NCBI RefSeq assembly: GCF_001444425.1
Contig: NZ_CP013189.1
Location: 558,001-622,000 of the forward strand
DNA: 64,000 nucleotides
DNA from: Pseudohongiella spirulinae
GTDB lineage: Bacteria; Pseudomonadota; Gammaproteobacteria; Pseudomonadales; Pseudohongiellaceae
Direction of reading: 5' to 3'
Shown: in pieces, positions 38,526-55,646 of the stretch
How positions within the stretch are numbered: the first letter of the stretch is position 1
How the letters are laid out: every line of letters starts with the position of its first letter
Notes under the pieces: model-generated
The model's input: only the letters and a program-made list of their open reading frames with translations
Databases searched by the model: none
What the model was told of the DNA's origin: nothing
Made by a program: the position numbers and the translations under genes

Positions 38526-39275
38526 ATGTTACTGAAGCTTGGTCAGCTACAAATAAAAATAAACTGGCTGGTTCTTTTGTGTTTGCTGTCCAGTCTGGGC
38601 ATGTTTATCAGTCTGGGGTTCTGGCAACTGGATCGTGCAGCCGAAAAACGCGGTGTGGCCAATGCATTGGAGCGCAGGGCGCAGGCGACGGCTCTGCCTT
38701 TGGCGCAGGCTGAAAATTCACCGGATTTTGGCGATACCAGTCCGGTTCGGCTTGAAGGCTTTTATGAAAACGAGATACCGTTTCTGATCAGTTTTCAGTT
38801 CTGGCGCGGACAGGCTGGTTTTGAGTTGATCACACCTTTCCGTTCCCGGGATGGCAATCTGGTGCTGCTCAGTCGCGGTTGGATCGCGCCGGCTCAGGAC
38901 GGCGAATTTCCAGAGATCCCTGCAGTGCCTGGTGAGCAGGTTGTTGTTGCACGTGTTCATGCGCCTGACATCGACGTGCCTGCGGCTGAAGTGACTTCCC
39001 GGAGCTGGCCAGTACTTCTGTCGCGATTAAACGTTGAGCAGGCAGGACGGTTGCTGGGTGAAAACGTCTACCCTTACGTGCTGCGCCTGGACGCTGACCA
39101 GCCTGGCGTTCAGGCTCGTCACTGGCAGCCGCCGAGTATTTCTACAAGAACGCATATTGCCTATGCCGTACAGTGGTTTGGTATTGCCGCCGTTGTCATG
39201 ATTGCGTCCTTTCTGTATTCAAGTAATTTTTTAAATCTGTGGCGTCAACGACGTCGTGCGGAGACTGAACACTGA
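38526..39275 (+). CDS. SURF1-family cytochrome oxidase assembly protein
   Basis: 249 residues with two membrane helices at the ends (INWLVLLCLLSSLGMFISLGFWQLDRA and IAYAVQWFGIAAVVMIASFLYSS) and the periplasmic SURF1 motifs LEGFYEN, LISRGW-like LLSRGWIAP and HIAYAVQWF. SURF1 helps insert haem a into aa3-type oxidases. No oxidase or haem A synthase genes are visible in this window. Stop and next start overlap (TGATG). Confidence 0.9.
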   Translation: MLLKLGQLQIKINWLVLLCLLSSLGMFISLGFWQLDRAAEKRGVANALERRAQATALPLAQAENSPDFGDTSPVRLEGFYENEIPFLISFQFWRGQAGFELITPFRSRDGNLVLLSRGWIAPAQDGEFPEIPAVPGEQVVVARVHAPDIDVPAAEVTSRSWPVLLSRLNVEQAGRLLGENVYPYVLRLDADQPGVQARHWQPPSISTRTHIAYAVQWFGIAAVVMIASFLYSSNFLNLWRQRRRAETEH

Positions 39276-40741
39276 TGTCCCAGCTATATCTGGTAGTTGA
39301 TGATCTTGCACAATGGCAGCATGAGATCCAGGGGCAGGCTGTCATCAGTTTTGACAGTTATCTTAGTGAGCACCCGATCAAGGGACAAAAGAAAACCCGC
39401 ATTATCAATCTGTGTAATACCGATCGATATCTGAGTAAAGGGTATTATTGCTCCTTGCTCGCTGAGGCCAGGGGACACAAAGTGTTGCCACCGGTTAACA
39501 CCTTGACTGACCTGGCAAGCCAGCAGTTGACACTGGTCATTGCCAGCGAAGTGTTGGCAGATATCAAAAAAAGTGATCTGACCCGAACGGAAGAGGGGCA
39601 CAGTTTTCGAGTGTATTTCGGACGCAGCTCTTTACCGCAGTTAAAGCAGTTGTCACGGCGATTGTTCGAACGTTTTCCCTGTCCGATTCTGGAGGTTGTG
39701 CTCGCACACAATGAAGACGGCTGGCAGGTGCGTTCTGTTAAAGCTATAGCCTATGCTGAACTGGGTGAGACGGAAATACCTTTTTTTCTGGAGGCATTGT
39801 CAGTATTCACACAGAGCCAGTGGCTGCGTAAGCGCAGCAGCAGGGCCGGGCGCTGGGATATGGCAATTCTGGTCAATCCCGCCGAACAATTGCCGCCGAG
39901 CGACAGCAGCGCCATAAAACGCATGAAGCGTGCGGCAGAAAAAATAGGCTTTGAAGTGGAAATCATCGGTCCCCAGGATTATGCGCGTCTCAATGAGTTT
40001 GATGCCCTGTTCATTCGGGAAACCACCGCCATTGACCATCATACCTACCGCTTCGCTCGCAAGGCAGAGATTGAGGGACTGGTAGTGATTGATGACCCGA
40101 CATCCATCCTGCGCTGCTGCAATAAAGTATTCCTTCAGGATGCATTCAGCTACAGTGGAGTGCCTACGCCACTGACACGAATTGTGTCTGCCTGCGATGA
40201 TGCGGCCCTGGATGAGCTGGAGCAGGTTTTTACTTATCCTGTCGTGCTGAAAATACCAAACAGTGCGTTTTCGGTGGGTGTGATGAAAGCAGAGAACCGT
40301 CAGATGTTGCACGATATGCTGCAGGATCTGTTGACCCGCTCAGCGTTAATCCTGGCACAGGAATACCTTTACACTGAATACGACTGGCGAATAGGTGTGC
40401 TGAATAACCGGCCGTTATTTGCCTGCCGGTACTTTATGGCCAAAGGGCATTGGCAGATCTACAAACATGGTGAAGGGCGCATTGGCAGTGGGGGCTGGGA
40501 AACATTGCCGACCTATGAGGTGCCCAAATCAGTGCTGGATGCGGCTCTCAAATCCGCACGACTGATTGGCGATGGATTGTATGGTATTGATATCAAGCAG
40601 CAGGGTAATAAAGTGTACGTCATCGAGGTCAATGATAATCCCAGTCTGGAGCATGGAGTAGAGGACCAGTTCATAGGCGACGAGCTATACATGCAGATCA
40701 TGGCGGAGTTTGCCCGGCGACTGGAAAACAGGGGGCGTTGA
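39275..40741 (+). CDS. RLAN-domain RimK-like ATP-grasp ligase
   Basis: 488 residues. The N-terminal ~200 residues form the RimK-like ATP-grasp N-terminal domain (RIINLCNTDRYLSKGYYCSLLAEARGHKVLP). The C-terminal ATP-grasp (from about 205) has FIRETTAIDHHTYRFARKAE, VVLKIPNSAFSVGV, LAQEYLYTEYDWRIGVLN and VIEVNDNPSLEHGVED for ATP and Mg2+. Predicted chemistry is ATP-dependent amide-bond formation on an unknown acceptor. It meets the GNAT-C39 gene tail to tail with one base between; this pairing is recurrent for the family. Confidence 0.88.
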   Translation: MSQLYLVVDDLAQWQHEIQGQAVISFDSYLSEHPIKGQKKTRIINLCNTDRYLSKGYYCSLLAEARGHKVLPPVNTLTDLASQQLTLVIASEVLADIKKSDLTRTEEGHSFRVYFGRSSLPQLKQLSRRLFERFPCPILEVVLAHNEDGWQVRSVKAIAYAELGETEIPFFLEALSVFTQSQWLRKRSSRAGRWDMAILVNPAEQLPPSDSSAIKRMKRAAEKIGFEVEIIGPQDYARLNEFDALFIRETTAIDHHTYRFARKAEIEGLVVIDDPTSILRCCNKVFLQDAFSYSGVPTPLTRIVSACDDAALDELEQVFTYPVVLKIPNSAFSVGVMKAENRQMLHDMLQDLLTRSALILAQEYLYTEYDWRIGVLNNRPLFACRYFMAKGHWQIYKHGEGRIGSGGWETLPTYEVPKSVLDAALKSARLIGDGLYGIDIKQQGNKVYVIEVNDNPSLEHGVEDQFIGDELYMQIMAEFARRLENRGR

Positions 40742-40742
40742 T

Positions 40743-41882
40743 TCAGACGGGAAAACGCAAGGGCTTTCTTGAGATGATGACAGCCGAGCGCAGTTTGTCC
40801 TTTCCAAACTGCGACATGCTGGCAAAGTCGCCCCTTGCAATTGGCAGATCCTCGCAGTCAAGTCCGGTTTGCTCCTCCAGCGACGGGTCAGGGTCGTTGA
40901 TATAGAAGCAGGCCTCATCGTAGGCAGTGATAGTGACCCAGTGGGGTGCTTTCTTCCTGTCCAGTCTGTAGCTGCTGATCAGCGCCAGGACAATGGCATC
41001 TTTTTTGATGGCATGTTCAATATCAAGTTGTGTTACATCGCGGTGCATAATGCGGATATGTTGCTCATGGGTTTGGCGCTCAAATTGAGAGTGCACCAGT
41101 GCCATGATGCGCTTCTTTTCCGGATCTCGTACACCTTCAAGAAACAGGGGGCCCGACTGGTTGACAAAAACCTGTGTATGAAAACCGCGTTTTTTTCCTG
41201 CCAGCGCCAGACCTAAGGGGTGGCAACCCCCGTGACCGGAGGTCATAAATATTGTGGTGGCTTCCCGCCAGATATCCAGCTCTGTGGTCTGCGATAGTTC
41301 AGTCGTGTTATCCAGCGCGGCCATGGCCATCAGCAATGAGGCCGGCCCACAGGTGAAGCCGGTTGTCTGTTGGTACCAGGGCACCTTGTTACCACGCCGG
41401 CGTTTGGGTGCATAGCGAATAATTTTCTGCATCCGCAGTGCCGTGCGGTGATCTTCGTAGTAATCTTCGATCTCGTCGAAGGCGCCATAACCTTCGCTTT
41501 CGTAAAGCCGGATAGCAGCGGTATTATCCTTGGCCACTTCAAGCCGCATAAAGAAGCGATCGCGAGCTGCAGATGCCGCCTCCAGTGCTCGTAGCAAGGA
41601 GCGACCAATGCCAAGCCCCCTTGCACTGTCTGCCACGGCAATTGAGTAAAGTCGCGCAAGGTGTGTGGAGCCGTGAAACAGGACCAGCCCATAAGCCAGA
41701 ATTTCATCGTTGCGCACCGCCACCATAAATTCCCGATTATCCGCCATAATCCAGTGACGCAAGCGGCGTCGAGACAATCGATCCGTCTCAAAACTGGCAA
41801 TCTCCAGGGCCTGTAAAGCATTCAGGTCGGCCAGAGTGACTGGCCGAACACGAATCATCTGTCTGGATTTGGGTGATGGCAT
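40743..41882 (-). CDS. GNAT acetyltransferase fused to C39-like cysteine peptidase
   Basis: 379 residues. The N-terminal GNAT domain (10-155) contains the acetyl-CoA loop ARGLGIGRSLL (88-97) and RLYESEGY. The C-terminal domain (about 165-375) is papain-like, C39-type (DUF3335): TGFTCGPASLLMAM with nucleophile C178, then PHWVTITAYD supplying His and INDPDP. Known as a partner of RLAN ATP-grasp ligases; a role in making or trimming modified peptides is inferred. Its 5' end overlaps the FAD oxidoreductase gene by 28 bases. Confidence 0.88.
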   Translation of the reverse strand: MPSPKSRQMIRVRPVTLADLNALQALEIASFETDRLSRRRLRHWIMADNREFMVAVRNDEILAYGLVLFHGSTHLARLYSIAVADSARGLGIGRSLLRALEAASAARDRFFMRLEVAKDNTAAIRLYESEGYGAFDEIEDYYEDHRTALRMQKIIRYAPKRRRGNKVPWYQQTTGFTCGPASLLMAMAALDNTTELSQTTELDIWREATTIFMTSGHGGCHPLGLALAGKKRGFHTQVFVNQSGPLFLEGVRDPEKKRIMALVHSQFERQTHEQHIRIMHRDVTQLDIEHAIKKDAIVLALISSYRLDRKKAPHWVTITAYDEACFYINDPDPSLEEQTGLDCEDLPIARGDFASMSQFGKDKLRSAVIISRKPLRFPV

Positions 41883-42886
41883 GTCGCGCAGTTTAATATG
41901 CTTTGTGCAAGATGCCTACCGCTTTGCCAGGCGCCTTCGACGCGTCCGCCGTTCAGCCAGTCACCGCAAATGCCGAGCTTCAGGCCGGATTCAAGGCGGC
42001 TGACCGGCGCATCAGGCGCATCGCCATTGCGAGCATAACGCCAGCGATGGGCACTGGTCTGTGTCACATTGAAAGCGTTTAATTCAATGCCCGTTAAGCG
42101 GGCAAACTCGGCAAGCAGATTCGTCGTGGCCTGTTCTGCGGTTAGCTCAAGATTATCCAGACTCCATTGCTCTGATGCATGCAGTAACCAGCATTCCGCT
42201 CCTTTGCGCGAAGGCTTGCTGGTATCGCGTGCGATCCAGCTTAAGGCACCCTCATTGACAAAGGCAGCATCGAAGGACGCTTCCAGGGGGTTATCGCAAG
42301 CCAGCATCACGGCCCAGCAGGGTTGCATGCCAAAGCGTTGGATCGCCGCACTCACGTCAGGCGCGGAAGATGACAGTAATTCCGAGGACTGAGGGGCGGG
42401 CATCGCACAGACAACCCAATCGAATTGAGCCGTCTCGGTAGCGCCGTTGGCCGACTGATAACCAAGCAGCCAGCCGCCACCGCGACGTTGCAAGGTCTGC
42501 ACACGACACTGACTCTTGATGTTCAGCCCCTGAGCCATAAAGCGAGCTGGAGCACTCATACCGGGTGTGCCCACAAATCGACGGGTCTCTGATTTTCTGG
42601 CGTCTGGCAGATCGGCCGGGCGCTCACCGATAGAAATGATTGTTGCCTGCCATTCGGCCGCCGCTCCTGCCCGTATCCAGCTATCGACTTCGTCCCTGAA
42701 TTGCGCTGATCGGGCTGTGAAATACTGTGCGCCATGATCGCACTGCCAGGACTCTGTCCGTCGGGTGCTCATGCGCCCACCCAGGCCGCGGGACTTTTCG
42801 AATACGGTGATCTCCAGTCCGGCCTGCTGAAGTATTTTCGCGCAGCCAAGGCCAGACAGCCCGGCTCCAATAACAGCAACTTTCAT
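41855..42886 (-). CDS. FAD-dependent oxidoreductase, renalase/amine-oxidase-like
   Basis: 343 residues. The dinucleotide motif GAGLSGLG (7-14), FEKSRGLGGRMSTRR, and CDHGAQYFTARS are hallmarks of the renalase-like NAD/FAD oxidoreductases often annotated beside photolyases. The C-terminal GICGDWLNGGRVEGAWQSG closes the FAD site. Substrate unknown. It lies nine bases after the photolyase-like gene. Confidence 0.88.
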   Translation of the reverse strand: MKVAVIGAGLSGLGCAKILQQAGLEITVFEKSRGLGGRMSTRRTESWQCDHGAQYFTARSAQFRDEVDSWIRAGAAAEWQATIISIGERPADLPDARKSETRRFVGTPGMSAPARFMAQGLNIKSQCRVQTLQRRGGGWLLGYQSANGATETAQFDWVVCAMPAPQSSELLSSSAPDVSAAIQRFGMQPCWAVMLACDNPLEASFDAAFVNEGALSWIARDTSKPSRKGAECWLLHASEQWSLDNLELTAEQATTNLLAEFARLTGIELNAFNVTQTSAHRWRYARNGDAPDAPVSRLESGLKLGICGDWLNGGRVEGAWQSGRHLAQSILNCATCHHPNPDR

Positions 42887-42895
42887 GCGTATATC

Positions 42896-44425
42896 CTAAA
42901 GCATCTCAATGTTTTTGATCACGATGTCGGCGCGCGTCAGGATAGCCTGTTTTTTCCCGGCATCCATGCGCTTCCAATTACGGTAAACCATGCCCATGCG
43001 GGGATTGTGCTCCAGCTTTGCCTGGTGGCGGTTGATAAAATGCCAATACAGGGAGTTAAATGGACAACTGTCTGTCTCGGTGCTGGTTTTCACCTTGTAG
43101 CGGCACGATCTGCAGTAGTCAGACATACGGTTAATATAACTGCCAGAGGCGGCATAGGGTTTGCTGGCCATCACACCGCCGTCTGCATAGAGGGCCATGC
43201 CCAGTGTATTTGGCAGCTCTACCCATTCGTAGGCATCCGCATAAATGGCCAGATACCAGTCGCAAACCTGCTGAGGATCGAGGCCTGCCAGTAGCGCGAA
43301 ATTGCCAGTAAGCATCAGACGCTGAATATGATGTGCATAGGCATTATTCAATGTATTGTGCAGGCTTTGTTGCATGCATAACATGTCAGTTTTGCCCGTC
43401 CAGTAGTAGTGCGGCAGTGGCGTTGATTGCTGTAGATAATTGTGATTTTTATACGTGGGCATTAGCAGCCAATAAAGGCCACGCACATATTCTCGCCAGC
43501 CGATAATTTGCCGGATGAAACCCTCGGCGGCATTAAGCGGCACTGCACCATCCAGATAAGCTCTTTCAGCAGCCCTGCACACTTCAATAGGGTCAAGTAG
43601 CCCACAATTCAGACTGGTTGACAACAGGCTATGAAACATGAAATGTTGATGCTGGTTCATGGCATCCTGAAACTGCCCGAAGTGTGGCAGGAGTTGACAG
43701 ATAAAACAGTCAAGCGCTGTCAGCGCCTGCTCTCGGGAAGTCGGCCAAATGAAGCCTGACAGCTCGCCCGGATGTGTGGCGAAGTGTTCTTCAACCAGGC
43801 TTAGTACCTCAATGTCGATGGCATCGCGCTGAAATATCAGACGTTCAGGTAATGCCGGACGGCCTTTGTAGGCCTGCCGGTTGTCGGCATCAAAATTCCA
43901 CTGACCGCCCAGTGGATTGTTGCCGTCCATCAGCAGTCCGGTCTTGCGGCGCACCTCGCGGTAAAAATACTCCATGCGCAACTGCTTCCGGCCCCTGGCC
44001 CAGTGGCTGAATTCATCTTTGCTGGTAATAAACCGCGAATCTGGCAGTACCGTAACCCGGCATTGCAGCGCTGTTGGCCAGGCTTCCGTTATCTGTGACT
44101 GCAAGCGGTATTCACCACATTCGGTGATGACCAGTTCGGTGGTTTCCGATTGTCTCAGAAACGCGCTGAGTACATCGAGCAGGCTCCAGGCGGTGCTCTG
44201 TGGCTGGTATGAGTGATAGCGCAATTGCCAGCCCTGCTGCTGAAGCTCCCTTGCAAAGTGGCGCATGGCGCTGAATAGCAGAGCAATTTTCTGTTTGTGA
44301 TGTTTGACATAGGTGGCTTCTTCCGCAACTTCGGCCATCACGATCATGTCGCATTCGCGATCAAGTTTTTGTAGCGTTGGCAGGTTGTGGCTGAGCTGAT
44401 CGCCCAGTATCAGGCCGACTTTCAT
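42896..44425 (-). CDS. FeS-containing (6-4) photolyase/cryptochrome (FeS-BCP/CryPro, PhrB-like)
   Basis: 509 residues from ATG 44425, which overlaps the DCC stop by four bases; a TTG four codons upstream is less plausible. The N-terminus (MKVGLILGDQLSHNLPTL) and whole layout are of the DPRP family. Four cysteines, C350, C438, C441 and C454, fall at the same numbers recalled for the [4Fe-4S] ligands of Agrobacterium PhrB. FAD-binding helices (MLTGNFALL and WYLAIYADAYEWVELPNT) are present. Expected function: light-dependent repair of (6-4) photoproducts or light sensing. Confidence 0.92.
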   Translation of the reverse strand: MKVGLILGDQLSHNLPTLQKLDRECDMIVMAEVAEEATYVKHHKQKIALLFSAMRHFARELQQQGWQLRYHSYQPQSTAWSLLDVLSAFLRQSETTELVITECGEYRLQSQITEAWPTALQCRVTVLPDSRFITSKDEFSHWARGRKQLRMEYFYREVRRKTGLLMDGNNPLGGQWNFDADNRQAYKGRPALPERLIFQRDAIDIEVLSLVEEHFATHPGELSGFIWPTSREQALTALDCFICQLLPHFGQFQDAMNQHQHFMFHSLLSTSLNCGLLDPIEVCRAAERAYLDGAVPLNAAEGFIRQIIGWREYVRGLYWLLMPTYKNHNYLQQSTPLPHYYWTGKTDMLCMQQSLHNTLNNAYAHHIQRLMLTGNFALLAGLDPQQVCDWYLAIYADAYEWVELPNTLGMALYADGGVMASKPYAASGSYINRMSDYCRSCRYKVKTSTETDSCPFNSLYWHFINRHQAKLEHNPRMGMVYRNWKRMDAGKKQAILTRADIVIKNIEML

Positions 44426-44814
44426 CGGCGCGGGCAACGATCATCGCAACGCGGCTGGCGGGTGATCCATGCTGAGATACGGTGACGATGTCTGGCAAAA
44501 ATTCGATAGCAAAAATCAGCCACAGGCTTGATCAGCGGCCAGCGCAGGAAGGCAAACCAGTGCCCCTTGCCAACGGCATGCCAGGCTGCGCAGGTCGCGT
44601 CTACGCCATAGACCACAGTGCCATCAGCATATTCGGCGTGCAGGGTCGCGTTAGCAGCTTGCGGGTCGATATGCGGAAACCGCTCACTGAAATCCTGTGC
44701 ATTGATATCCTGCAATTCGAGTTTGCCTGCGCTGTTAAGTTTGCGCAGGTGCTCGATTTCCATGCAACACAGCGGGCATTGTCCGTCATAGAACAGTCTC
44801 ACGTTATCCTGCAT
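44422..44814 (-). CDS. DCC-family (DUF393) thiol-disulfide oxidoreductase-like protein
   Basis: 130 residues. The family motif YDGQCPLC is at 9-16 with an additional C17, followed by LQDINAQDF and a conserved GVDATCAAWHAVG. Tail rich in Arg/His/Cys (RQPRCDDRCPRR). DCC proteins look thioredoxin-like; function unproven. The gene is five bases after the chemoreceptor stop and overlaps the photolyase start. Confidence 0.87.
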   Translation of the reverse strand: MQDNVRLFYDGQCPLCCMEIEHLRKLNSAGKLELQDINAQDFSERFPHIDPQAANATLHAEYADGTVVYGVDATCAAWHAVGKGHWFAFLRWPLIKPVADFCYRIFARHRHRISAWITRQPRCDDRCPRR

Positions 44815-44819
44815 TGAAA

Positions 44820-46400
44820 CTACCTGTTTGCTGATGAACGAAAGCGGCGGATCTGAAGATCCAGCTCTTTGCTGATGGATTGCAGGTCAGCGCTGAGTCC
44901 AGCCAGATCAACGGCCTGAGCCGCGTTGCTGCGGGCGATACCGTCTACTTCAGATAAATGGCGGGCGACGTCATCGCCCACGGCTGACTGCTCTTGAGAC
45001 GCGGAGGCGATCATATCATTCATTCTTGAGATATTAGCGATCTCGGTGGCCATGCCAGACAGGGTCTGTGTTCCGCCATCGGCGGCCTGCAGACATCGCT
45101 GCACCGATTCTTCACTTCGTCCCATGGCGTCTCTTGCCGACTCCGAGGCGCGTTGCAGTTGCTCAATGATGCTCTGGATTTCCTCAGTGGACTGTGCAGT
45201 GCGCTGTGACAGGTTCCGCACCTCGTCAGCCACAACGGCGAATCCGCGACCCTGATCACCAGCCCTGGCGGCCTCAATGGCGGCGTTCAGTGCCAGCAGG
45301 TTGGTCTGCTCGGCAACGCCTTTGATGACATCAACCACCGAATCAATCTGGTTGGCCAACTGAGCGGTGCCAGTGACCGCTTCGCCCGTCAGGCTGATGT
45401 TGTGATTCAATGAGCTGATTTCATCTTTAATGTTTTGCATGGCCTGATTGCCTTTACTCGCATGGCTGTCAGCATTTCTGGCAGCCGCTGCAGCGTTCTC
45501 TGCGTTACGCGCCACTTCTGCCGTTGCCGTGCTCATCTCCTGCATGGCCTGTACCATGTACTCGCTCTCGCTGGCCTGGCGTTCAGCGCTGGCACTGACG
45601 TTATTGGATTTGTCGGTCAGTGCATCGCCCATTTCCTTGAGCGCACCAAGCCGCGTCTGAACATCGCCGACCAGAGTTTCCAGCTGCGCGACAAATCCGT
45701 TAAAAGCCTGCGTTACCGGGGTGTCGAGTTTGACTCGGTAGGACAGGTCAATGGTTTCTGCATCGCGGGTAATCATCTGACTGGCATCGGCCATTGCCTG
45801 TCCTTCTGCAGCATCCTGCGCGGACAGCCTGGCCAGATAAACCAGAACACCAGCCTCTGCTATGACATAGCCGGCATGAATAAAAATCATATGCAAATGA
45901 GCGTGTTCAGTGACCCACACACCAAAACCGTTTACCTGCAGGTAGAAAAACAGGAAATGATGCACGGCAATGACCGCAGCCGCCGCAATAATAGGCAGCC
46001 AGTCGCGATACACAATCAGCAAAGCCAGCAGCACGAAAATCGAAAAATGCATTTCGATCGTGCCATGGCTCTGATGAATATGCAGCGCTGACATGACCAT
46101 AAAAGCCGTGGCCATCAGGCAGCGATACAGAACGGTACCTTGCTGGCTGGGCAAAAGTGCCGCCAGCAGGGCGAGCGTGCCGCCCCCGACAACAATGGAC
46201 GTCAGCCATGTACCGTGCCAGGGAGAGAGTGCCAGTGAGTAAAGCTGGCAGATTAACAGGACACCCAGCATGACCCGGTCTGCCCGTCGGTAATAGCTGG
46301 TGTTGGCGTTGCTGTGACTGTCACTGCTGATGGAAATCATGTCTTGAATCTCGGGAAGAAGGTGCTCTGGAAGAAGGTCTGCATGCAACCGTTCATTCAT
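44820..46400 (-). CDS. Methyl-accepting chemotaxis protein with His-rich multi-helix membrane sensor
   Basis: 526 residues from ATG 46400. In place of a periplasmic domain there are about six helices (44-195) carrying many histidines ([37 protein letters not shown]), suggesting haem, metal or other membrane-embedded sensing. The cytoplasmic signalling hairpin is standard ([33 protein letters not shown]). The sigma-28-like promoter just upstream would start RNA near 46396, after this ATG. ATG 46340 (506 residues) could therefore be the real start, although its ribosome site is weak. First gene of a five-gene reverse run. Confidence 0.88.
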
Positions 46401-46402
46401 CT

Positions 46403-46429
46403 ATATCGGCGTGAAAATCGTTCGCTTTA
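46403..46429 (-). promoter_or_regulatory. Candidate sigma-28 (FliA) promoter of chemoreceptor run
   Basis: On the minus strand: TAAAGCGA, exact 11-base spacer, GCCGATAT. This agrees with TAAAGTTT-N11-GCCGATAA at 5 of 8 and 7 of 8 positions. FliA commonly transcribes chemoreceptor genes. Confidence 0.6.
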
Positions 46430-46484
46430 TACGGTCAGTAAATAAAACTGGTTCAGATTGGTTTGTGACAAAGCGGTAATGGAT

Positions 46485-46562: not shown

Positions 46563-48038
46563 ATGCCTGATCAAACACAGCAAGCCAACTCTCGACGCTC
46601 CTTCATCAAGGGAAGTCTGACGGGCAGCGCCATGGCGGCCGCTTTGTCATCAGCGCCGTTTGTTAAAGCACTGCAGTCGGCCTCGACACCCGGTCTAAGC
46701 TCTCGTCGTACCGAAAGCCCCTATGGTCCCTTGCGTCCGGTTAAGGATGAGGTAACAGGTCTTGAGCTGCTGCAACTGCCAGCGGGTTTCAGCTACGCCA
46801 CGTTGTCGTGGACGGGCGACTTGATGAGTAACGGTGACGCAGTGCCGCCGGGTCATGACGGCATGGGTGTGATTACTGTTGATGGTGACAATATTGTTCT
46901 GGTGCGAAATCATGAACTGGGTGCCGGCCGAATGCTGCCGGCCAGCGCTGTCTATGACGGCGTCAGGTTGGCAACCGGTAATCAGGCGGCGGGTGGAAAC
47001 ACAACGCTGCATTTCTCGCGCGCAACGCGTCGCGAAGTGGCGACAATTCCCAGTCTGGGTGGCACTCTGGCCAATTGCGCCGGCGGTGTGACGCCGTGGG
47101 GGACATGGTTGTCCTGCGAGGAAACTGTTAATGACATGACGGCCGACGGTGGTCGTCGCCACGGCTATGTGTTTGAGGTCCGGGCAGACGCTGAGCAGAC
47201 CACGGCGGTACCGATCGTTGGCATGGGGCGTTATAAACACGAGGCCGCTGCTGTTGATCCGGTGACCAGCTTTGTCTACCTGACGGAGGACAATCGCAAT
47301 CGCTCGCCTCTCTACCGCTACCTGCCTGATGATACCAGTCAGCAAGCCGGGTCGCTGGAGCAGGGAGGGCGCCTCCAGGCCGCCAGAGTCAAGGGTGTGC
47401 ATGCTGCCGACTTGCTGACACCAGCACTGGGTGAGGAGTATGACCTGGAATGGATTGATGTGGCGGACCCTGATGCTGATCCTGTCGGCGATAGCAGCGG
47501 CCCATGTGTGCAGGCGCGGGCTGGCGGGGCGCTGACCATCAGTCGTGGCGAAGGCATCTGGTACGCCGACGGGCTGGTTTATATCGTCGATACCAGCGCC
47601 GGGTATGATGACGAAGGCCGGCCAGGACATGGCAATGGCGCGGTCTGGATGCTGGATCCGCAGCAGAATCGCCTGCGCTGTATTTTCGCCTCAAGCGATG
47701 AGGTGATGGCCAATAATCCTGACAACGTCACCATCAGCCCAAGAGGTGGCATCGTTATGTGTGAAGATGGTGGCGGCGTGCAAGATGAGTTTGGTTTCGG
47801 CGAACGTGTCATGGGGTTGACGCCGACCGGTGACAGCTACATATTCGCAAAAAACAACATTGTGCTCTCGGATACCGACATCGCTGTCAGCGGCAAAGTG
47901 GCTGAACCGGGAGACTATCGGAATCGCGAAATCGCAGGCGCCTGTTTTGACCCGTCAGGTGAGTTTCTGTTTATCAATATCCAGACTCCCGGTATAACGT
48001 TTGCGATCTGGGGGCCCTGGGACCGCGGACCGATTTAA
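46563..48038 (+). CDS. PhoX-family (DUF839) Tat-exported phosphatase
   Basis: 491 residues. A twin-arginine signal (SRRSFIKGS, 10-18) marks Tat export. The propeller-like DUF839 body includes NHELGAGRMLPAS, GGVTPWGTWLSCEETVND, GRYKHEAAAVDP, YLTEDN and GGIVMCEDGG, all typical of PhoX, a Ca/Fe-dependent alkaline phosphatase that frees phosphate from organic esters in the periplasm. The PHO box upstream supports this. Its 3' end overlaps the convergent gene by four bases. Confidence 0.9.
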   Translation: MPDQTQQANSRRSFIKGSLTGSAMAAALSSAPFVKALQSASTPGLSSRRTESPYGPLRPVKDEVTGLELLQLPAGFSYATLSWTGDLMSNGDAVPPGHDGMGVITVDGDNIVLVRNHELGAGRMLPASAVYDGVRLATGNQAAGGNTTLHFSRATRREVATIPSLGGTLANCAGGVTPWGTWLSCEETVNDMTADGGRRHGYVFEVRADAEQTTAVPIVGMGRYKHEAAAVDPVTSFVYLTEDNRNRSPLYRYLPDDTSQQAGSLEQGGRLQAARVKGVHAADLLTPALGEEYDLEWIDVADPDADPVGDSSGPCVQARAGGALTISRGEGIWYADGLVYIVDTSAGYDDEGRPGHGNGAVWMLDPQQNRLRCIFASSDEVMANNPDNVTISPRGGIVMCEDGGGVQDEFGFGERVMGLTPTGDSYIFAKNNIVLSDTDIAVSGKVAEPGDYRNREIAGACFDPSGEFLFINIQTPGITFAIWGPWDRGPI

Positions 48039-50017: not shown

Positions 50018-52588
50018 TCAACTGCCAGTCCGGGTGCCGGTAATCAGGCGCTCATCATCCTCATCTCGAATAGTCTGGCTGTTCTGTAGCAGGCGGGTAC
50101 ACTCTGCAGCGGGCAGGGCCGGGTTCATTAGCCAGCCCTGCATGCTGTCACAACGACAGCTGAGCAGGATCTGATACTGTTCGGTGGTTTCCACGCCTTC
50201 GGCCAACACTTCCAGGTCCAGACTGTCAGCCAGATTCACAAGGCCTGCGATAATGGCTGACTTTTTGGCATCGATGGCCAGGTCACGCATAAAACTACGG
50301 TCGATTTTCAGGGTCTGCAGCGGAAAAAGCTGCAGAGACGCCAGCGATGAGTAGCCGGTACCGAAATCATCAATCGACACATGCAGCCCCAGTGCAACCA
50401 GGTGACGCAAGGTTTCCGCAACAACGTCGGTGTTGTCCATCAGGGCCGTTTCAGTCAGCTCTATGCCCAGCAAAGTCGGATCAACTCCGGTGGCGCCAAG
50501 CTGTTCTTCAATGAATGTAATCAGCGCATTTTTTTGCCGGAAATGCAGCGCTGAAATGTTGACCGAGATACGAATTGGCTTGCCCATATCAGACCATTGT
50601 CTGATCTGACGACAGGCGGTGCTGAGTACCATCTCCGTGATGGGTATTATCAATCCATTGGCCTCAGCAACCGGTATAAATACTTCCGGCGAAATGCTGC
50701 CGTCTGGCGGCGACCAGCGCAGCAAGGCCTCAAATCCGCATATGCGCTGATCCGATACGCGGTATTGTGGCTGATAAAATACGTGCAGGGCGCCTTCGTC
50801 GAGTGCGTCGATGAGGCGAGTTTTCAGGATCTGTGTCTCTTGCTGATCCTGGCTCATGCCTGCGTTAAAAAAGCAGGCAGTGCGCCGACCCATGGCCTTG
50901 GCACGGTACATGGCAATGTCGGCATGGCTGAGCAGGGTTTCGGCGTCATCGGCGTGCTCTGGATACAGAGCAACTCCAATGCTGGCGCTGACATGGAACT
51001 GATGCTCGCCCAGCACAAACACATTGCGCATGGCATCGGTGATTTTCTCAACCACGGCTCGCGCACCTTCCAGATCATTGGCATCTGTGGCCAGGATAAC
51101 AAATTCGTCACCACCAAACCGGGCTACCGTGTCGCCCTGACGTAATGCCCGATTCAGTCGGCGGGCGACAGTAATCAATAGTTGGTCACCGAGTGTATGA
51201 CCCCAGCCGTCGTTGATGTCCTTGAAGTTATCCAGGTCGACCATGATCAGACAGAACATCATGTTGTGGCGACGCGAATGCACAATGGCCCGATCCAGGC
51301 GGTCATTCATGAGCTGGCGATTAGGAAGACCAGTCAGAATATCGTGTGTTGCGCGATGCTGCATATCCCGTTCGAGCTTCTGGCGCTCTGAGACATCGCG
51401 GATGAACGCGGTGATCTGCACGCCGCCTGAACTCTTGTGGGTGCCCAGGGCAATATCAACCGGAATTTCATGACCGTCTTTGCAGCGACCTACCAGGCCG
51501 CGCTGGGATGCCATCGGCCGTCCGGTAGGAGCGGCCAGGTAGCTATCGCGCAATTGGCTGTGCCGATTGCGCAGAGAAATCGGCAGCAGAATCTCTACAG
51601 GCTCGCCCAGTAACTCCCGCTCCGAATAACCGAACAGACGCTGCAGGGCCGGATTAACAAAGCGGATGCGACCGTTTTGGTCAATGCCAAGTATACCGTC
51701 AGGAGCATTGCTGAGCAGTTCATCGAGCTGATCCGAGTAAGTTTGCAGCTTGGCATGAGCCTGCTGCAGTCGCTCCATTGGTGTGCGGATGGTGTCCAGA
51801 AACATCGCCCGGTAGAGATAGGCGTAGGCCAGGACTTTATAGATATGTCCAATAAACACACTCAGGGTTTGTGATTGCCCCGGAATCAGAAAAAAAATTT
51901 CACTGGTGGTCATCAGTAAAACAGCCATCACCAGGGCTGCCGGGCTGAGCAGGCCAATGCGTTTGTGCTGCCACCAAATGACCGCCAGAGTTATCAGGTG
52001 CACGGCAACCACAAGAATCTGACCCTGAGTATAAATACGCAGAGACTCTGCATTGTTCAGCCATCCCGGGGTGCTGGTGATGAGCAGCAAGATGAGCGCG
52101 GTAAGCGCCAGAGTTGAGACAAGATAGGCGTAGCGAGCCGGTGCGAATGGAGTGCCGGTCGATGTGCTGGCCGCCAGCAGGTAGACCAGCAGGCTGACAG
52201 CTGCAATGCAACGGGCAACCAGCCAGAACAGTTCAGTCTTGGCCGGGATGTTCGCAGTTATGAAGTCTGGCATGCCGGGGTAGGAGAGCAGGTGTGCTGT
52301 GTCAAACATGGCGACAGACAAAAATGCGCAGGCCAGTAACAAAGAGCCCCGGGGCCTTTTGTCATCAAGAACGTTCCAGCCAACAAAAAAGATACAGGCA
52401 GCGATGATGACGGCCAGTAACTCCAGAAGCGCATGTGACCAGAGGAATAAATCAGAGCTGATGAGGGTGGCGGTGTTGTTCAGCGCCAGCCAAACCAGCA
52501 GTGGCAATGCCAGAGCAATCAGGGAAATACCCGATATTCTCAACAGGCTTAACAATGGAGTCATAGTGTCTTGACGATCTATTGGCAT
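50018..52588 (-). CDS. MASE3-PAS-GGDEF-EAL cyclic-di-GMP signalling protein
   Basis: 856 residues. A MASE3 seven-helix membrane sensor (about 15-265; HALLELLAV, FDTAHLLSYPGMPDF) is followed by a PAS domain (about 290-410; GILGIDQNGRIRFVNPALQRLFGYSERELLG). Next is GGDEF with intact GGDEF and I-site RQGD five residues before it, then EAL (FEALLRW, NISALHFRQ, IDDFGTGYSSL). Both catalytic domains look intact, so it could make or break c-di-GMP. Start ATG 52588 has GGGGGAGG nine bases ahead. It lies two bases from the convergent bfr stop. Confidence 0.94.
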   Translation of the reverse strand: MPIDRQDTMTPLLSLLRISGISLIALALPLLVWLALNNTATLISSDLFLWSHALLELLAVIIAACIFFVGWNVLDDKRPRGSLLLACAFLSVAMFDTAHLLSYPGMPDFITANIPAKTELFWLVARCIAAVSLLVYLLAASTSTGTPFAPARYAYLVSTLALTALILLLITSTPGWLNNAESLRIYTQGQILVVAVHLITLAVIWWQHKRIGLLSPAALVMAVLLMTTSEIFFLIPGQSQTLSVFIGHIYKVLAYAYLYRAMFLDTIRTPMERLQQAHAKLQTYSDQLDELLSNAPDGILGIDQNGRIRFVNPALQRLFGYSERELLGEPVEILLPISLRNRHSQLRDSYLAAPTGRPMASQRGLVGRCKDGHEIPVDIALGTHKSSGGVQITAFIRDVSERQKLERDMQHRATHDILTGLPNRQLMNDRLDRAIVHSRRHNMMFCLIMVDLDNFKDINDGWGHTLGDQLLITVARRLNRALRQGDTVARFGGDEFVILATDANDLEGARAVVEKITDAMRNVFVLGEHQFHVSASIGVALYPEHADDAETLLSHADIAMYRAKAMGRRTACFFNAGMSQDQQETQILKTRLIDALDEGALHVFYQPQYRVSDQRICGFEALLRWSPPDGSISPEVFIPVAEANGLIIPITEMVLSTACRQIRQWSDMGKPIRISVNISALHFRQKNALITFIEEQLGATGVDPTLLGIELTETALMDNTDVVAETLRHLVALGLHVSIDDFGTGYSSLASLQLFPLQTLKIDRSFMRDLAIDAKKSAIIAGLVNLADSLDLEVLAEGVETTEQYQILLSCRCDSMQGWLMNPALPAAECTRLLQNSQTIRDEDDERLITGTRTGS

Positions 52589-53570: not shown

Positions 53571-53603
53571 GAAGAAGCAGGATTCATGACAGGAGCAGCA
53601 GTA

Positions 53604-55646
53604 ATGAGAGCATTATTTGCACCGGCAACCTACATACTTAACCGTTTCGGCTTCAAAATTAAGTTTTTGATTATCTTTTGCTGTGTTCTCCTGCCTTTGC
53701 TGGTACTGGGCGCTCTGGTGGTGGGCAGTATTAATGAAGATATTGCCACGCTGGAAAATGAGCGGCGCGGTGTCGAGTTTTTGCAGTCTCTGCGCACTCC
53801 GGTAGATAGGGTGCAGCAGCATCGAGGTCTGATGGCTACTGCCTTGAGTGGCTCGGATGCCTCTGCGCAAAGCCGCGTTACGCAATTAAGACCACAAATT
53901 GACAGTGCCCTGACTACTTTGCTGCAACAGGCTGATCTGGCTGAAGATAATGCAGGTTTGCAAAGTCGAATCCGCGATGCGCAACAGCAATGGGACGCTA
54001 TCAAATCCCAGTCCTCAATCAGTGCTGATCGCAGCTTTGAATTACACACCAATCTGGTCACGGCGTTGATTCAGTTGGGTGAGTATGCCTCTGATGTTTT
54101 TGAGATCTCTTTGTCGGCCAGCCTGGATACTTTTTATCTTGGTGACGCATTAGTTAATCGTTTGCCTGCGCTGACCGAGAATATGGGCCAGGCGCGTGCC
54201 GTGGCTTCAGCAGCGGCTGCTCAGGGCATTGTTAATAATGATGTGCGTATGCAGCTGGAGCTTCTGCTGTACAACATGAATGCCTACAGTAGTGCCCTGC
54301 AGCGTGGTTTAGATAGTGCGTTTGCAGAAAACCCGTCATTGCGCCCAGCGTTGGGTGCGACTATGCAGGCCAACAATGAGGCTGGCGCGCGACTTCGAGA
54401 ACTGATTCGCAATGATTTTCTGGATGCTGAGTTCATCTCGATTACGAGTAACCAGGTCTTTGATGCGGCCAGTCGTTCGATACAGCAAGCCTATGCGCTA
54501 TTCGACAGCATTGCGCCTCAATTAGACAGGGTTCTGGCTGAAGATCTCGCCGCCGCTCAAAGCGTTAAACTGCTGGATACGGTCATTGTAGCTGTCGTTT
54601 TGCTGCTGCTGATATACCTGTTCATGGCACTATTTATGTCAGTGAATGACAACGTTGAGCAAATAGCCCGTGTCGCCAATGAAATGTCTGCCGGTAATCT
54701 GGCCAGCCGGGTCAGGCTCAGCACCAACGATGAGATCAGCGTTATAGCGGGGCACTTTAACAAAATAGCGGATCAGTTTGAAAACGTCATTCTGACTGTC
54801 AGCAGCGCGTCGACGCAGCTCGCGTCAGCGGCCGAGGAGCTTTCAAGTGTGTCCCGGCACAGTGCTGAAAACGTCCTGAGGCAACGCTCAGAGACCGATA
54901 TGGTGGCGGTGTCTATCAACGAGATGAACGCCACAGTTCAGGAAGTTTCCCGCAGCACCTCACGAGCCTCGGAAGCCGCGACCGATACCGATGAACAGGC
55001 CGCCAGCGGTGCCGAAGTGGCAGCAACAACCGCCCAAAGCATTGCGAATCTGGCTGAAGATATCCATCAGTCAGCCGGCAGTATGCAGCGAGTGGCTGCG
55101 GACAGCGCCTCCATTAGCAGCGTGCTGGATGTCATTATGGGTGTCGCTGAGCAGACCAATCTGCTGGCGCTGAATGCCGCCATTGAGGCTGCGCGTGCCG
55201 GTGAGCATGGCCGCGGATTTGCCGTGGTGGCTGATGAAGTCCGTACCCTGGCAAATCGTACCAAAGATTCAGCCAGCGAGATCGAAAATATGATTAATCA
55301 CCTGCAGTCAGGTGTGAAGGAAGCTGTGCAGTTAATGGAGCGTAGTCGCGAGCGTGCCACAGATGGTGTGACCAAAGCTAACGAGGCGGCGCAGGCGCTT
55401 GATGCCATCACCCGGGCGGTTGCGACTATCCGTGACATGAATTTGCAGATCGCCAGTGCTTCTGAGCAACAGAGTGCGACAACCGATGAATTGAACCGCA
55501 ATGTCACCAGTATCCGCGAACTGGCGGAGCAGTCTGCTGCAGGTGCTGACCAGACTACGGCGGCCAGTGATGAACTGGCGCGGCTGGCCAGCGACCTGCA
55601 GCAATCGGTAGCCTGGTTTACGCTGTCCGAAAAGCGCGCTTCATAA
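53604..55646 (+). CDS. Methyl-accepting chemotaxis protein, large helical periplasmic domain
   Basis: 680 residues from ATG 53604. This start has AGGAG eight bases ahead and fits the promoter; ATG 53586 would leave almost no leader. TM1 is at about 20-42. A ~290-residue helical periplasmic domain follows, beginning [15 protein letters not shown], as in nitrate-sensing-like NIT helices. TM2 is at about 331-352, then HAMP ([20 protein letters not shown]) and the signalling hairpin ([38 protein letters not shown]). The ligand is unknown. The 3' end overlaps the convergent hydrolase by six bases. Confidence 0.93.

What the first reader, a model, noticed from the sequence alone, without database searches (positions are those of the whole stretch)
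40743..46429. Chemoreceptor, FeS photolyase, FAD oxidoreductase and protease genes in one tight run
Five reverse-strand genes (chemoreceptor, DCC, PhrB-like photolyase, renalase-like oxidoreductase, GNAT-C39) are spaced by +5, -4, +9 and -28 bases, behind one sigma-28-like promoter. Co-expressing a receptor with a flavin/FeS light protein under a motility sigma factor suggests light- or redox-linked behaviour rather than only DNA repair. The spacing and motifs are seen; the shared function is inferred.
Basis: partly seen in the sequence, partly recalled or inferred. Interest (0 to 1): 0.75.

Follow-up and report, generated by a model that had tools for sequence, protein, structure and literature searches.

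The report
Chemoreceptor inside a light-stress repair operon
In this bacterial genus a gene for a swimming-behaviour sensor usually sits at the head of a sunlight-damage repair operon, behind what look like a stress promoter and a swimming promoter, which suggests that cells link repairing light damage to changing how they swim.

Summary
In detail: five same-strand genes (chemoreceptor, DCC thiol protein, photolyase of the FeS PhrB/CryB family, FAD oxidoreductase, GNAT-C39) run tightly together. The order chemoreceptor-(DCC)-photolyase is conserved in 10 of 15 genomes of the genus; two others keep the operon without the receptor. It precedes the operon in 9 of 10 receptor-bearing and both receptor-less operons read, occurs near chrR in all 15 genomes, and precedes photolyases of other genera. 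The sigma-28-like site recurs in 7 of 10 receptor operons. The receptor is best read as a dual-controlled member of the photo-oxidative stress operon, probably steering cells by redox or photo-oxidative state. The photolyase most likely repairs DNA; a signalling role like that of its relative CryB is not excluded by sequence. The receptor's His-rich membrane domain matches no Pfam family or PDB sequence; in other families it often sits beside a CxC protein (DUF6436). GNAT-C39 travels with the convergent RimK gene at this locus. Regulation is well supported by sequence; the stimulus is inferred.

The parts
46428..46455 (-). ECF11 (RpoE-ChrR)-type promoter-like site TGAACC-N16-CGTATA
   Evidence: published consensus TGATC-N16-18-CGTAW (PMC5241685, figure-legend passage)
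46403..46429 (-). Sigma-28 (FliA)-type promoter-like site TAAA-N15-GCCGATAT; its -35 overlaps the ECF -10 by 2 nt
   Evidence: the same 15-nt spacer in flagellin promoters of the genus
44820..46400 (-). Methyl-accepting chemotaxis protein with a His-rich N-terminal membrane domain (about six helices) of no known family; likely start ATG 46340
44422..44814 (-). DCC1-like thiol-disulfide oxidoreductase-type protein (YDGQCPLC)
42896..44425 (-). Photolyase of the FeS PhrB/CryB family (DPRP), probable (6-4) photolyase
41855..42886 (-). FAD-dependent amine-oxidase-like oxidoreductase
40743..41882 (-). GNAT acetyltransferase fused to C39-like peptidase (DUF3335); probable start 41858; likely belongs with RimK
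39275..40741 (+). RimK-like ATP-grasp ligase (RLAN + RimK), convergent with and 1 nt from GNAT-C39; neighbour, not part of the photolyase unit

Best explanation
This is a photo-oxidative-stress repair operon of the RpoE-ChrR (ECF11) type with a chemoreceptor gene between its stress promoter and the DCC-photolyase genes, and with a FliA promoter for that receptor. Shown by sequence: gene order, overlaps, conservation in the genus, ECF11-type and FliA-type sites, and ChrR and FliA above family cut-off in every genome of the genus sample. Inferred: singlet oxygen or blue-light stress releases sigma-E from ChrR, and one transcript then yields receptor, DCC protein and photolyase (with SDR, lipocalin and FAD enzyme in relatives). 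The FliA promoter separately keeps the receptor, and by read-through some repair enzymes, available in swimming cells. The receptor shows no known periplasmic ligand domain; its His-rich membrane domain would sense membrane redox or photo-oxidative state, perhaps through a thiol partner, and bias the flagellar motor through CheA/CheY so that cells leave damaging light or redox conditions. The photolyase most likely repairs DNA and is not needed as the receptor's light sensor.
For: MCP-(DCC)-DPRP in 10 of 15 genus genomes; the 10 full-length receptor orthologues found in the genus (66-72% identity for the 9 besides the window) are the ones at the photolyase. DCC-DPRP, DPRP-SDR and lipocalin-FAD junctions are mostly short overlaps, several of 4 nt, counted from longest-ORF starts. 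ECF site in 9 of 10 receptor operons against a shuffle mean of 0.007, and FliA-type site in 7 of 10 against 0.0075 (patterns written after viewing the sequences). The ECF site is also in both receptor-less operons read (G010, G014). ChrR above cut-off in 15 of 15 and FliA in 15 of 15 genomes. In 4-9 kb stretches around chrR the N16 site occurs in 15 of 15: 32 hits at N16 against 4 at six other spacers together. In 80 named photolyase loci there are 23 hits at N16 and none at N15 or N17; 15 of the 23 lie within 250 nt upstream of the photolyase, 12 of these 15 in Marinobacter. In Shewanella the DPRP-SDR pair SO_4169-SO_4170 is listed with this promoter type (PMC4336711, passages).
Against: No expression data. 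The window's -35 is TGAACC, not TGATCC. The G001 ECF site is degenerate; G007, G008 and G009 lack a recognisable FliA site; the loose FliA pattern is hardly enriched genome-wide and was not found at the other receptors or in the 80 kb flagellar region. In a 390-genome order sample the receptor domain mostly lies away from photolyases (outside the genus 1 of 43 resolved genomes has them close). The stimulus is not shown and the structure model failed (pLDDT 51.6). In Vibrio cholerae blue light lowers chemotaxis genes, and in Pseudomonas syringae loss of chrR lowers swimming (PMC5241685, PMC11813219, passages), so stress could as well suppress swimming. CryB, an equally close relative of the photolyase, is reported to affect gene expression and to lack significant photorepair in vitro (PMC3320616, passages).
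Confidence: 0.5

Rival explanations
1. The receptor and the repair genes share transcription only by position: an ordinary aerotaxis or energy-taxis receptor happens to sit upstream of a stress operon, with no functional link.
For: The receptor type is widespread without photolyase linkage: of 71 regions outside the genus operon only 2 matched a photolyase or LitR-like query within about 5.5 kb. The receptor is missing from the operons of two genus members.
Against: Linkage in 10 of 10 genus genomes with a full-length orthologue at only 60-72% protein identity, tight spacing, the ECF-type site kept in 9 of 10 and the FliA-type in 7 of 10. Two further light-gene associations: DPRP and LitR-like gene near the MCP in Saccharospirillum and G361 (L059, L254), and DUF523-MerR-class I photolyase-MCP in G349 (L257).
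Confidence: 0.28
2. One reading: the FeS photolyase is the photoreceptor that signals to the receptor, making a phototaxis module.
For: Adjacent and probably co-transcribed. CryB of Rhodobacter sphaeroides (PDB 3zxs, E 3.3e-169, as close as PhrB and with the same cysteines and His pair) affects gene expression and had no significant photorepair in vitro, though its loss reduces photoreactivation (PMC3320616, passages).
Against: The photolyase occurs behind the same promoter type in other genera without a receptor of this type within the flanks read, and persists without the receptor in G010 and G014. No chromophore domain was found in the receptor. Photolyases are not known to me to act on MCPs (recalled).
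Confidence: 0.12
3. The receptor is controlled by FliA alone in practice; the ECF-type site serves only the repair genes through a long leader across the receptor gene.
For: FliA-type site in 7 of 10 receptor operons; in the window a FliA transcript could start at the receptor ORF.
Against: The ECF-type site is upstream of the receptor, so such a transcript includes it, and three receptor operons have the ECF site without a FliA match (G007, G008, G009).
Confidence: 0.08

Closest known systems
RpoE2-ChrR (ECF11) photolyase operon of Shewanella oneidensis (SO_4169 DPRP photolyase - SO_4170 SDR)
   Same: DPRP photolyase followed by an SDR (kept in relatives of the window) behind a TGATCC-N16-CGTA promoter; same sigma/anti-sigma pair (PMC4336711, passages)
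   Different: In the genus a chemoreceptor and usually a DCC gene stand between promoter and photolyase, with an added FliA-type site; the window itself has no SDR or lipocalin at this place
PhrB of Agrobacterium, prokaryotic (6-4) photolyase (PDB 4dja)
   Same: Match over residues 4-502, E 1.3e-169; FeS cysteines and His pair aligned
   Different: Gene context there not examined; activity of the window protein untested
CryB of Rhodobacter sphaeroides (PDB 3zxs)
   Same: Equally close by sequence (E 3.3e-169), same cysteines and His pair; reported to affect gene expression (PMC3320616, passages)
   Different: No link to a chemoreceptor seen in the passages read; whether the window protein signals is unknown
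Membrane chemoreceptors of the aerotaxis/energy-taxis kind
   Same: Standard MCP signalling domain; sensing part within the membrane or cytoplasm
   Different: No PAS, FAD or haem domain of a known family; N-terminal domain without Pfam or PDB match

Membership tests
Prokaryotic FeS photolyase/cryptochrome family (PhrB, FeS-BCP) | DPRP domain and near full-length similarity to PhrB | tested here: met
   PF04244 E 2e-79; 4dja E 1.3e-169 over residues 4-502
Prokaryotic FeS photolyase/cryptochrome family (PhrB, FeS-BCP) | Four cysteines of the 4Fe-4S cluster and the His-His pair (identity of residues recalled) | tested here: met
   LCMQQ, DYCRSC, SCPFN and AYAHHIQRLM align with PhrB
(6-4) photolyase as opposed to a signalling cryptochrome | Residues or similarity that separate repair enzymes from CryB | tested here: inconclusive
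   CryB scores 567 bits against 568 for PhrB and has the same cysteines and His pair
(6-4) photolyase as opposed to a signalling cryptochrome | Light-driven repair of (6-4) photoproducts | not testable with these tools
   needs enzyme assay
RpoE-ChrR (ECF11) regulon | Promoter TGATC-N16-18-CGTAW | tested here: met
   TGAACC-N16-CGTATA; one mismatch (A for T at the fourth -35 base), a variant also found before Marinobacter photolyases
RpoE-ChrR (ECF11) regulon | RpoE-ChrR pair in the genome with the same site near its own operon | tested here: met
   TIGR02451 above cut-off in 15 of 15; N16 site in the chrR stretch in 15 of 15. Gene coordinates were checked only for the window's genome, where the single N16 site faces the divergent gene, not rpoE
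RpoE-ChrR (ECF11) regulon | Induction by singlet oxygen | not testable with these tools
   needs RNA data
FliA (sigma-28) regulon | TAAA-N15-GCCGATAA promoter and a FliA sigma factor | tested here: met
   11 of 12 positions; FliA in 15 of 15. Site conserved in 7 of 10 receptor operons, not 10 of 10; function untested
Methyl-accepting chemotaxis protein | MCP signalling domain and membrane anchoring | tested here: met
   PF00015 E 4.2e-42; hydrophobic segments at 43-189 compatible with six helices
Photoreceptor-coupled phototaxis transducer | Recognisable chromophore domain in the receptor | tested here: not met
   No such domain by Pfam
Photoreceptor-coupled phototaxis transducer | Dedicated photoreceptor partner acting on the receptor | not testable with these tools
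   A flavoprotein of the PhrB/CryB family is co-encoded; interaction needs experiment

The most novel reading that the evidence does not exclude
A dedicated photo-oxidative-stress chemoreceptor family: the unassigned His-rich membrane domain, working with a thiol-active partner (DUF6436 in many other genomes, DCC here), senses singlet oxygen or membrane thiol redox directly. By being placed in the sigma-E-ChrR regulon it couples DNA repair with an escape response.
Probability: 0.25. Interest if true: 0.7.

Novelty: new variant of a known kind. Interest (0 to 1): 0.5.

Why it matters
The singlet-oxygen (RpoE-ChrR) response is described for repair, membrane and redox functions; a chemoreceptor built into it would add behaviour to that response and offer a testable case of stress-induced taxis in a bacterium. 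It also points to an unassigned sensory membrane domain found in 81 of 390 sampled genomes of the order, often beside a CxC protein of unknown function.

Tried and rejected
Rejected: GNAT-C39 as part of the photolyase function. GNAT-C39 and RimK occur together at this locus in G000, G003, G007, G008, G009, G011 and G013, and both are absent from the stretches read for G001, G002, G010 and G014; these stretches do not exclude copies elsewhere.

Tried without clear result: TGAWCY-N16-CGTAWA across the window's genome gave 12 hits against 2 in the control, but at most of the other sites I saw no clear link to light stress; gene identities there were read by eye, without family searches. The strict FliA pattern at the other chemoreceptor loci and in the 80 kb flagellar region gave no hit; flagellin promoters instead read TAAAG-N14-GTCGTTAA. 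A structure model of the receptor domain from two sequences had pLDDT 51.6 and pTM 0.30, so no fold search was made. DCC and DUF6436 profiles align only around the cysteine motif (hhalign probability 7%), so the idea that DCC replaces DUF6436 is speculation. A Pho-box-like repeat for the divergent PhoX gene was found in 5 of 12 genus regions. Paper searches (listings, capped at 12-15 rows of 24, 1, 84 and 109 papers) listed no title or abstract start on a chemoreceptor gene in an RpoE-ChrR or photolyase operon; only passages of nine papers were read, and the primary ECF11 regulon paper (Dufour 2008) was not. on DUF3335/RimK gave nothing used. The organism name is not established (recall suggests Pseudohongiella; one search did not settle it).
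Full report
WHAT IS THERE. The window lies in a single-contig genome of 3,345,119 bases, at 558001-622000. The photolyase is the only match to itself in that genome at E <= 0.001, and the receptor is one of seven MCPsignal matches.

CONSERVATION IN THE GENUS. The genus sample has 15 genomes, the window's included. The photolyase was found in 13 of 15, not in G006 or G012. The receptor with this N-terminal domain lies directly at the photolyase in 10 of 15: G000, G001, G002, G003, G005, G007, G008, G009, G011, G013. DCC stands between them in 8 of these 10; G008 and G009 lack it. G010 and G014 have DCC-photolyase without the receptor, and no receptor match in the genome. In G004 (85% complete) the contig ends inside DCC and no receptor was found in the genome. 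In G006 (72% complete) a 45-residue receptor remnant lies beside PhoX, followed by pieces that appear by eye to come from SDR and FAD genes. G012 has only a divergent receptor (34% identity). In relatives the operon is often longer and varies: G011 and G013 read MCP-DCC-photolyase-SDR-lipocalin-FAD-OmpA-GNAT-C39; G008 and G009 lack DCC, SDR and FAD; G001, G002 and G005 showed no lipocalin by the pattern used. The window shows no SDR, lipocalin or OmpA gene here. A photolyase tree places receptor-less G014 and G010 among receptor-bearing members, which suggests loss of the receptor. That tree is weak evidence: it is rooted at the midpoint on a long outgroup branch, and the outgroup rows L008, L009 and L100 fall inside the genus rows, so it need not follow the species (two of six intended outgroup rows, L014 and L101, failed to extract).

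PROMOTERS. Upstream of the receptor a TGAAC[CT]-N16-CGTA site occurs in 9 of 10 receptor operons (degenerate in G001) and in both receptor-less operons read. A T[AC]AA-N15-GCCG[AC][TC]A site occurs in 7 of 10 and in neither receptor-less operon. Dinucleotide shuffles give means of 0.007 and 0.0075 operons, with a maximum of 1 in 2000 rounds. Both patterns were written after looking at the sequences, and the genomes are related, so these are not clean probabilities. Independent support for the first site: the published sigma-E motif in Vibrio cholerae is TGATC-N16-18-CGTAW (PMC5241685, figure-legend passage). In Shewanella it precedes rpoE2, with a mapped start, and the photolyase-SDR pair SO_4169-SO_4170, the latter by promoter recognition (PMC4336711, passages). 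In 80 named photolyase loci (the best 80 of 534 relatives) a TGA[AT]CC-CGTA[AT] search gave 23 hits at N16 and none at N15 or N17, with 6 hits in the reversed control, all at N15. Of the 23, 15 lie within 250 nt upstream of the photolyase match on its strand, 12 of them in Marinobacter. ChrR is above cut-off in all 15 genus genomes. In the 4-9 kb stretches taken around chrR the N16 site occurs in 15 of 15, 32 hits against 4 at six other spacers. I checked gene coordinates there only for the window's genome, whose single N16 site faces the divergent gene; some hits in other genomes lie elsewhere in the stretch. For the FliA-type site, FliA is above cut-off in 15 of 15. Flagellin promoters of the genus show TAAAG-N14-GTCGTTAA, the same 15-nt spacer, in 10 of 17 flagellin loci scanned; in 4 of the other 7 the script had picked another ORF's start. 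Against it, a genome-wide loose pattern gives 29 hits to 21 in the control, and no match was found at the other receptors or in the 80 kb flagellar region.

OUTSIDE THE GENUS. Of the 80 named photolyase loci, 1 (L059, Saccharospirillum) has a receptor with the same N-domain, 2.4 kb downstream and after a MerR/LitR-like gene. Another 16 of the 80, 15 of them Marinobacter, have a different chemoreceptor (signalling domain only in common) upstream of the photolyase within 6 kb; in the two read, an opposite-strand gene lies between. In 390 genomes of the order, 81 have the receptor domain and 212 the photolyase. By hand count 45 outside the genus have both. For 39 the photolyase place was printed (one), and only G361 has the two within 5 kb, with the L059 layout. 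For 4 more the receptor region was read and held no photolyase; G183 and G436 are unresolved. So 1 of 43 resolved. I read 71 of the 77 receptor regions of that sample that lie outside the genus operon. In 24 of 71 (24 of the 48 closer ones, 0 of the 23 divergent ones) tblastn found a same-strand CxC protein next to the receptor; seven of the 24 supplied the queries. The four tested are DUF6436, PF20029. Photolyase or LitR-like matches occur in 2 of 71: L254, and L257 with a class I photolyase; only one class I, one DPRP and two LitR-like queries were used. An exact ECF or FliA pattern upstream of this receptor type was otherwise rare: of 23 receptor loci that a script could place (7 of 30 failed), 2 had the FliA pattern, both in the genus, and 5 the ECF pattern, 3 in the genus and 2 farther upstream elsewhere.

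THE PHOTOLYASE. It matches PhrB (4dja) at E 1.3e-169 and CryB (3zxs) at E 3.3e-169, with the same cysteines and His pair in both. Sequence alone therefore does not say whether it repairs or signals. CryB is reported to affect gene expression and to have no significant photorepair in vitro, while its loss reduces photoreactivation (PMC3320616, passages).

THE RECEPTOR DOMAIN. Fourteen N-domains share, among 30 invariant positions, E96, H98, H127, H128 and H155, numbered from M21. Hydropathy fits six membrane helices. No Pfam family reached its cut-off and no PDB sequence matched. The domain may bind a metal, haem or other cofactor; nothing here shows it.

HOW IT MOST LIKELY WORKS. The anatomy fits a repair operon of the RpoE-ChrR response that also carries a chemoreceptor with its own motility promoter. 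Stress would raise receptor, thiol protein and photolyase together; swimming cells would hold a basal level. The signalling step to the flagellum is standard for MCPs and is assumed. The stimulus (light-made oxidants, membrane redox or thiol state) is inferred from the company the gene keeps. Published findings that blue light lowers chemotaxis genes in V. cholerae (PMC5241685, passages), and that loss of chrR lowers swimming in P. syringae (PMC11813219, passages), show that the sigma-E-ChrR or blue-light response touches motility elsewhere, but in the direction of less swimming.

VERDICT. The gene run is real, conserved in the genus and more than chance. The regulatory coupling is the robust part and the sensory function the open part.

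Noticed in passing
window 46563-48038 (+): Divergent PhoX alkaline phosphatase gene (PF05787) shares the intergenic region with the receptor; a Pho-box-like repeat is present by a simple pattern in 5 of 12 genus regions, the window's included.
   Followed up: partly
window 39275-41882: GNAT-C39 (DUF3335) and a RimK/RLAN ATP-grasp gene converge with a 1-nt gap and are present or absent together at this locus in the genus genomes read, suggesting a peptide-ligase/protease pair of unknown product.
   Followed up: partly
window 53586-55646 (+) and 50018-52588 (-): A second chemoreceptor (HAMP + MCPsignal) and a MASE3-PAS-GGDEF-EAL protein lie nearby.
   Followed up: no
L257 1806-6934: DUF523-like gene, MerR/B12-binding (LitR-like) gene, class I photolyase and a receptor with the same N-domain, all on one strand in a genome of another family.
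   Followed up: partly
L254-L301 (24 of 48 regions): Receptors with this N-domain sit beside a CxC DUF6436 protein, before or after it. One paper in the library mentions DUF6436; it was not read.
   Followed up: partly
L014, L018, L020 and other Marinobacter loci: A different chemoreceptor gene lies about 2-5 kb upstream of the photolyase in 15 Marinobacter loci and one Thalassolituus locus, in the two read with an opposite-strand gene between.
   Followed up: no
L149 1500-2020: In G006 the operon appears decayed: a receptor remnant is followed by what look like SDR and FAD fragments where the photolyase would be (read by eye).
   Followed up: no
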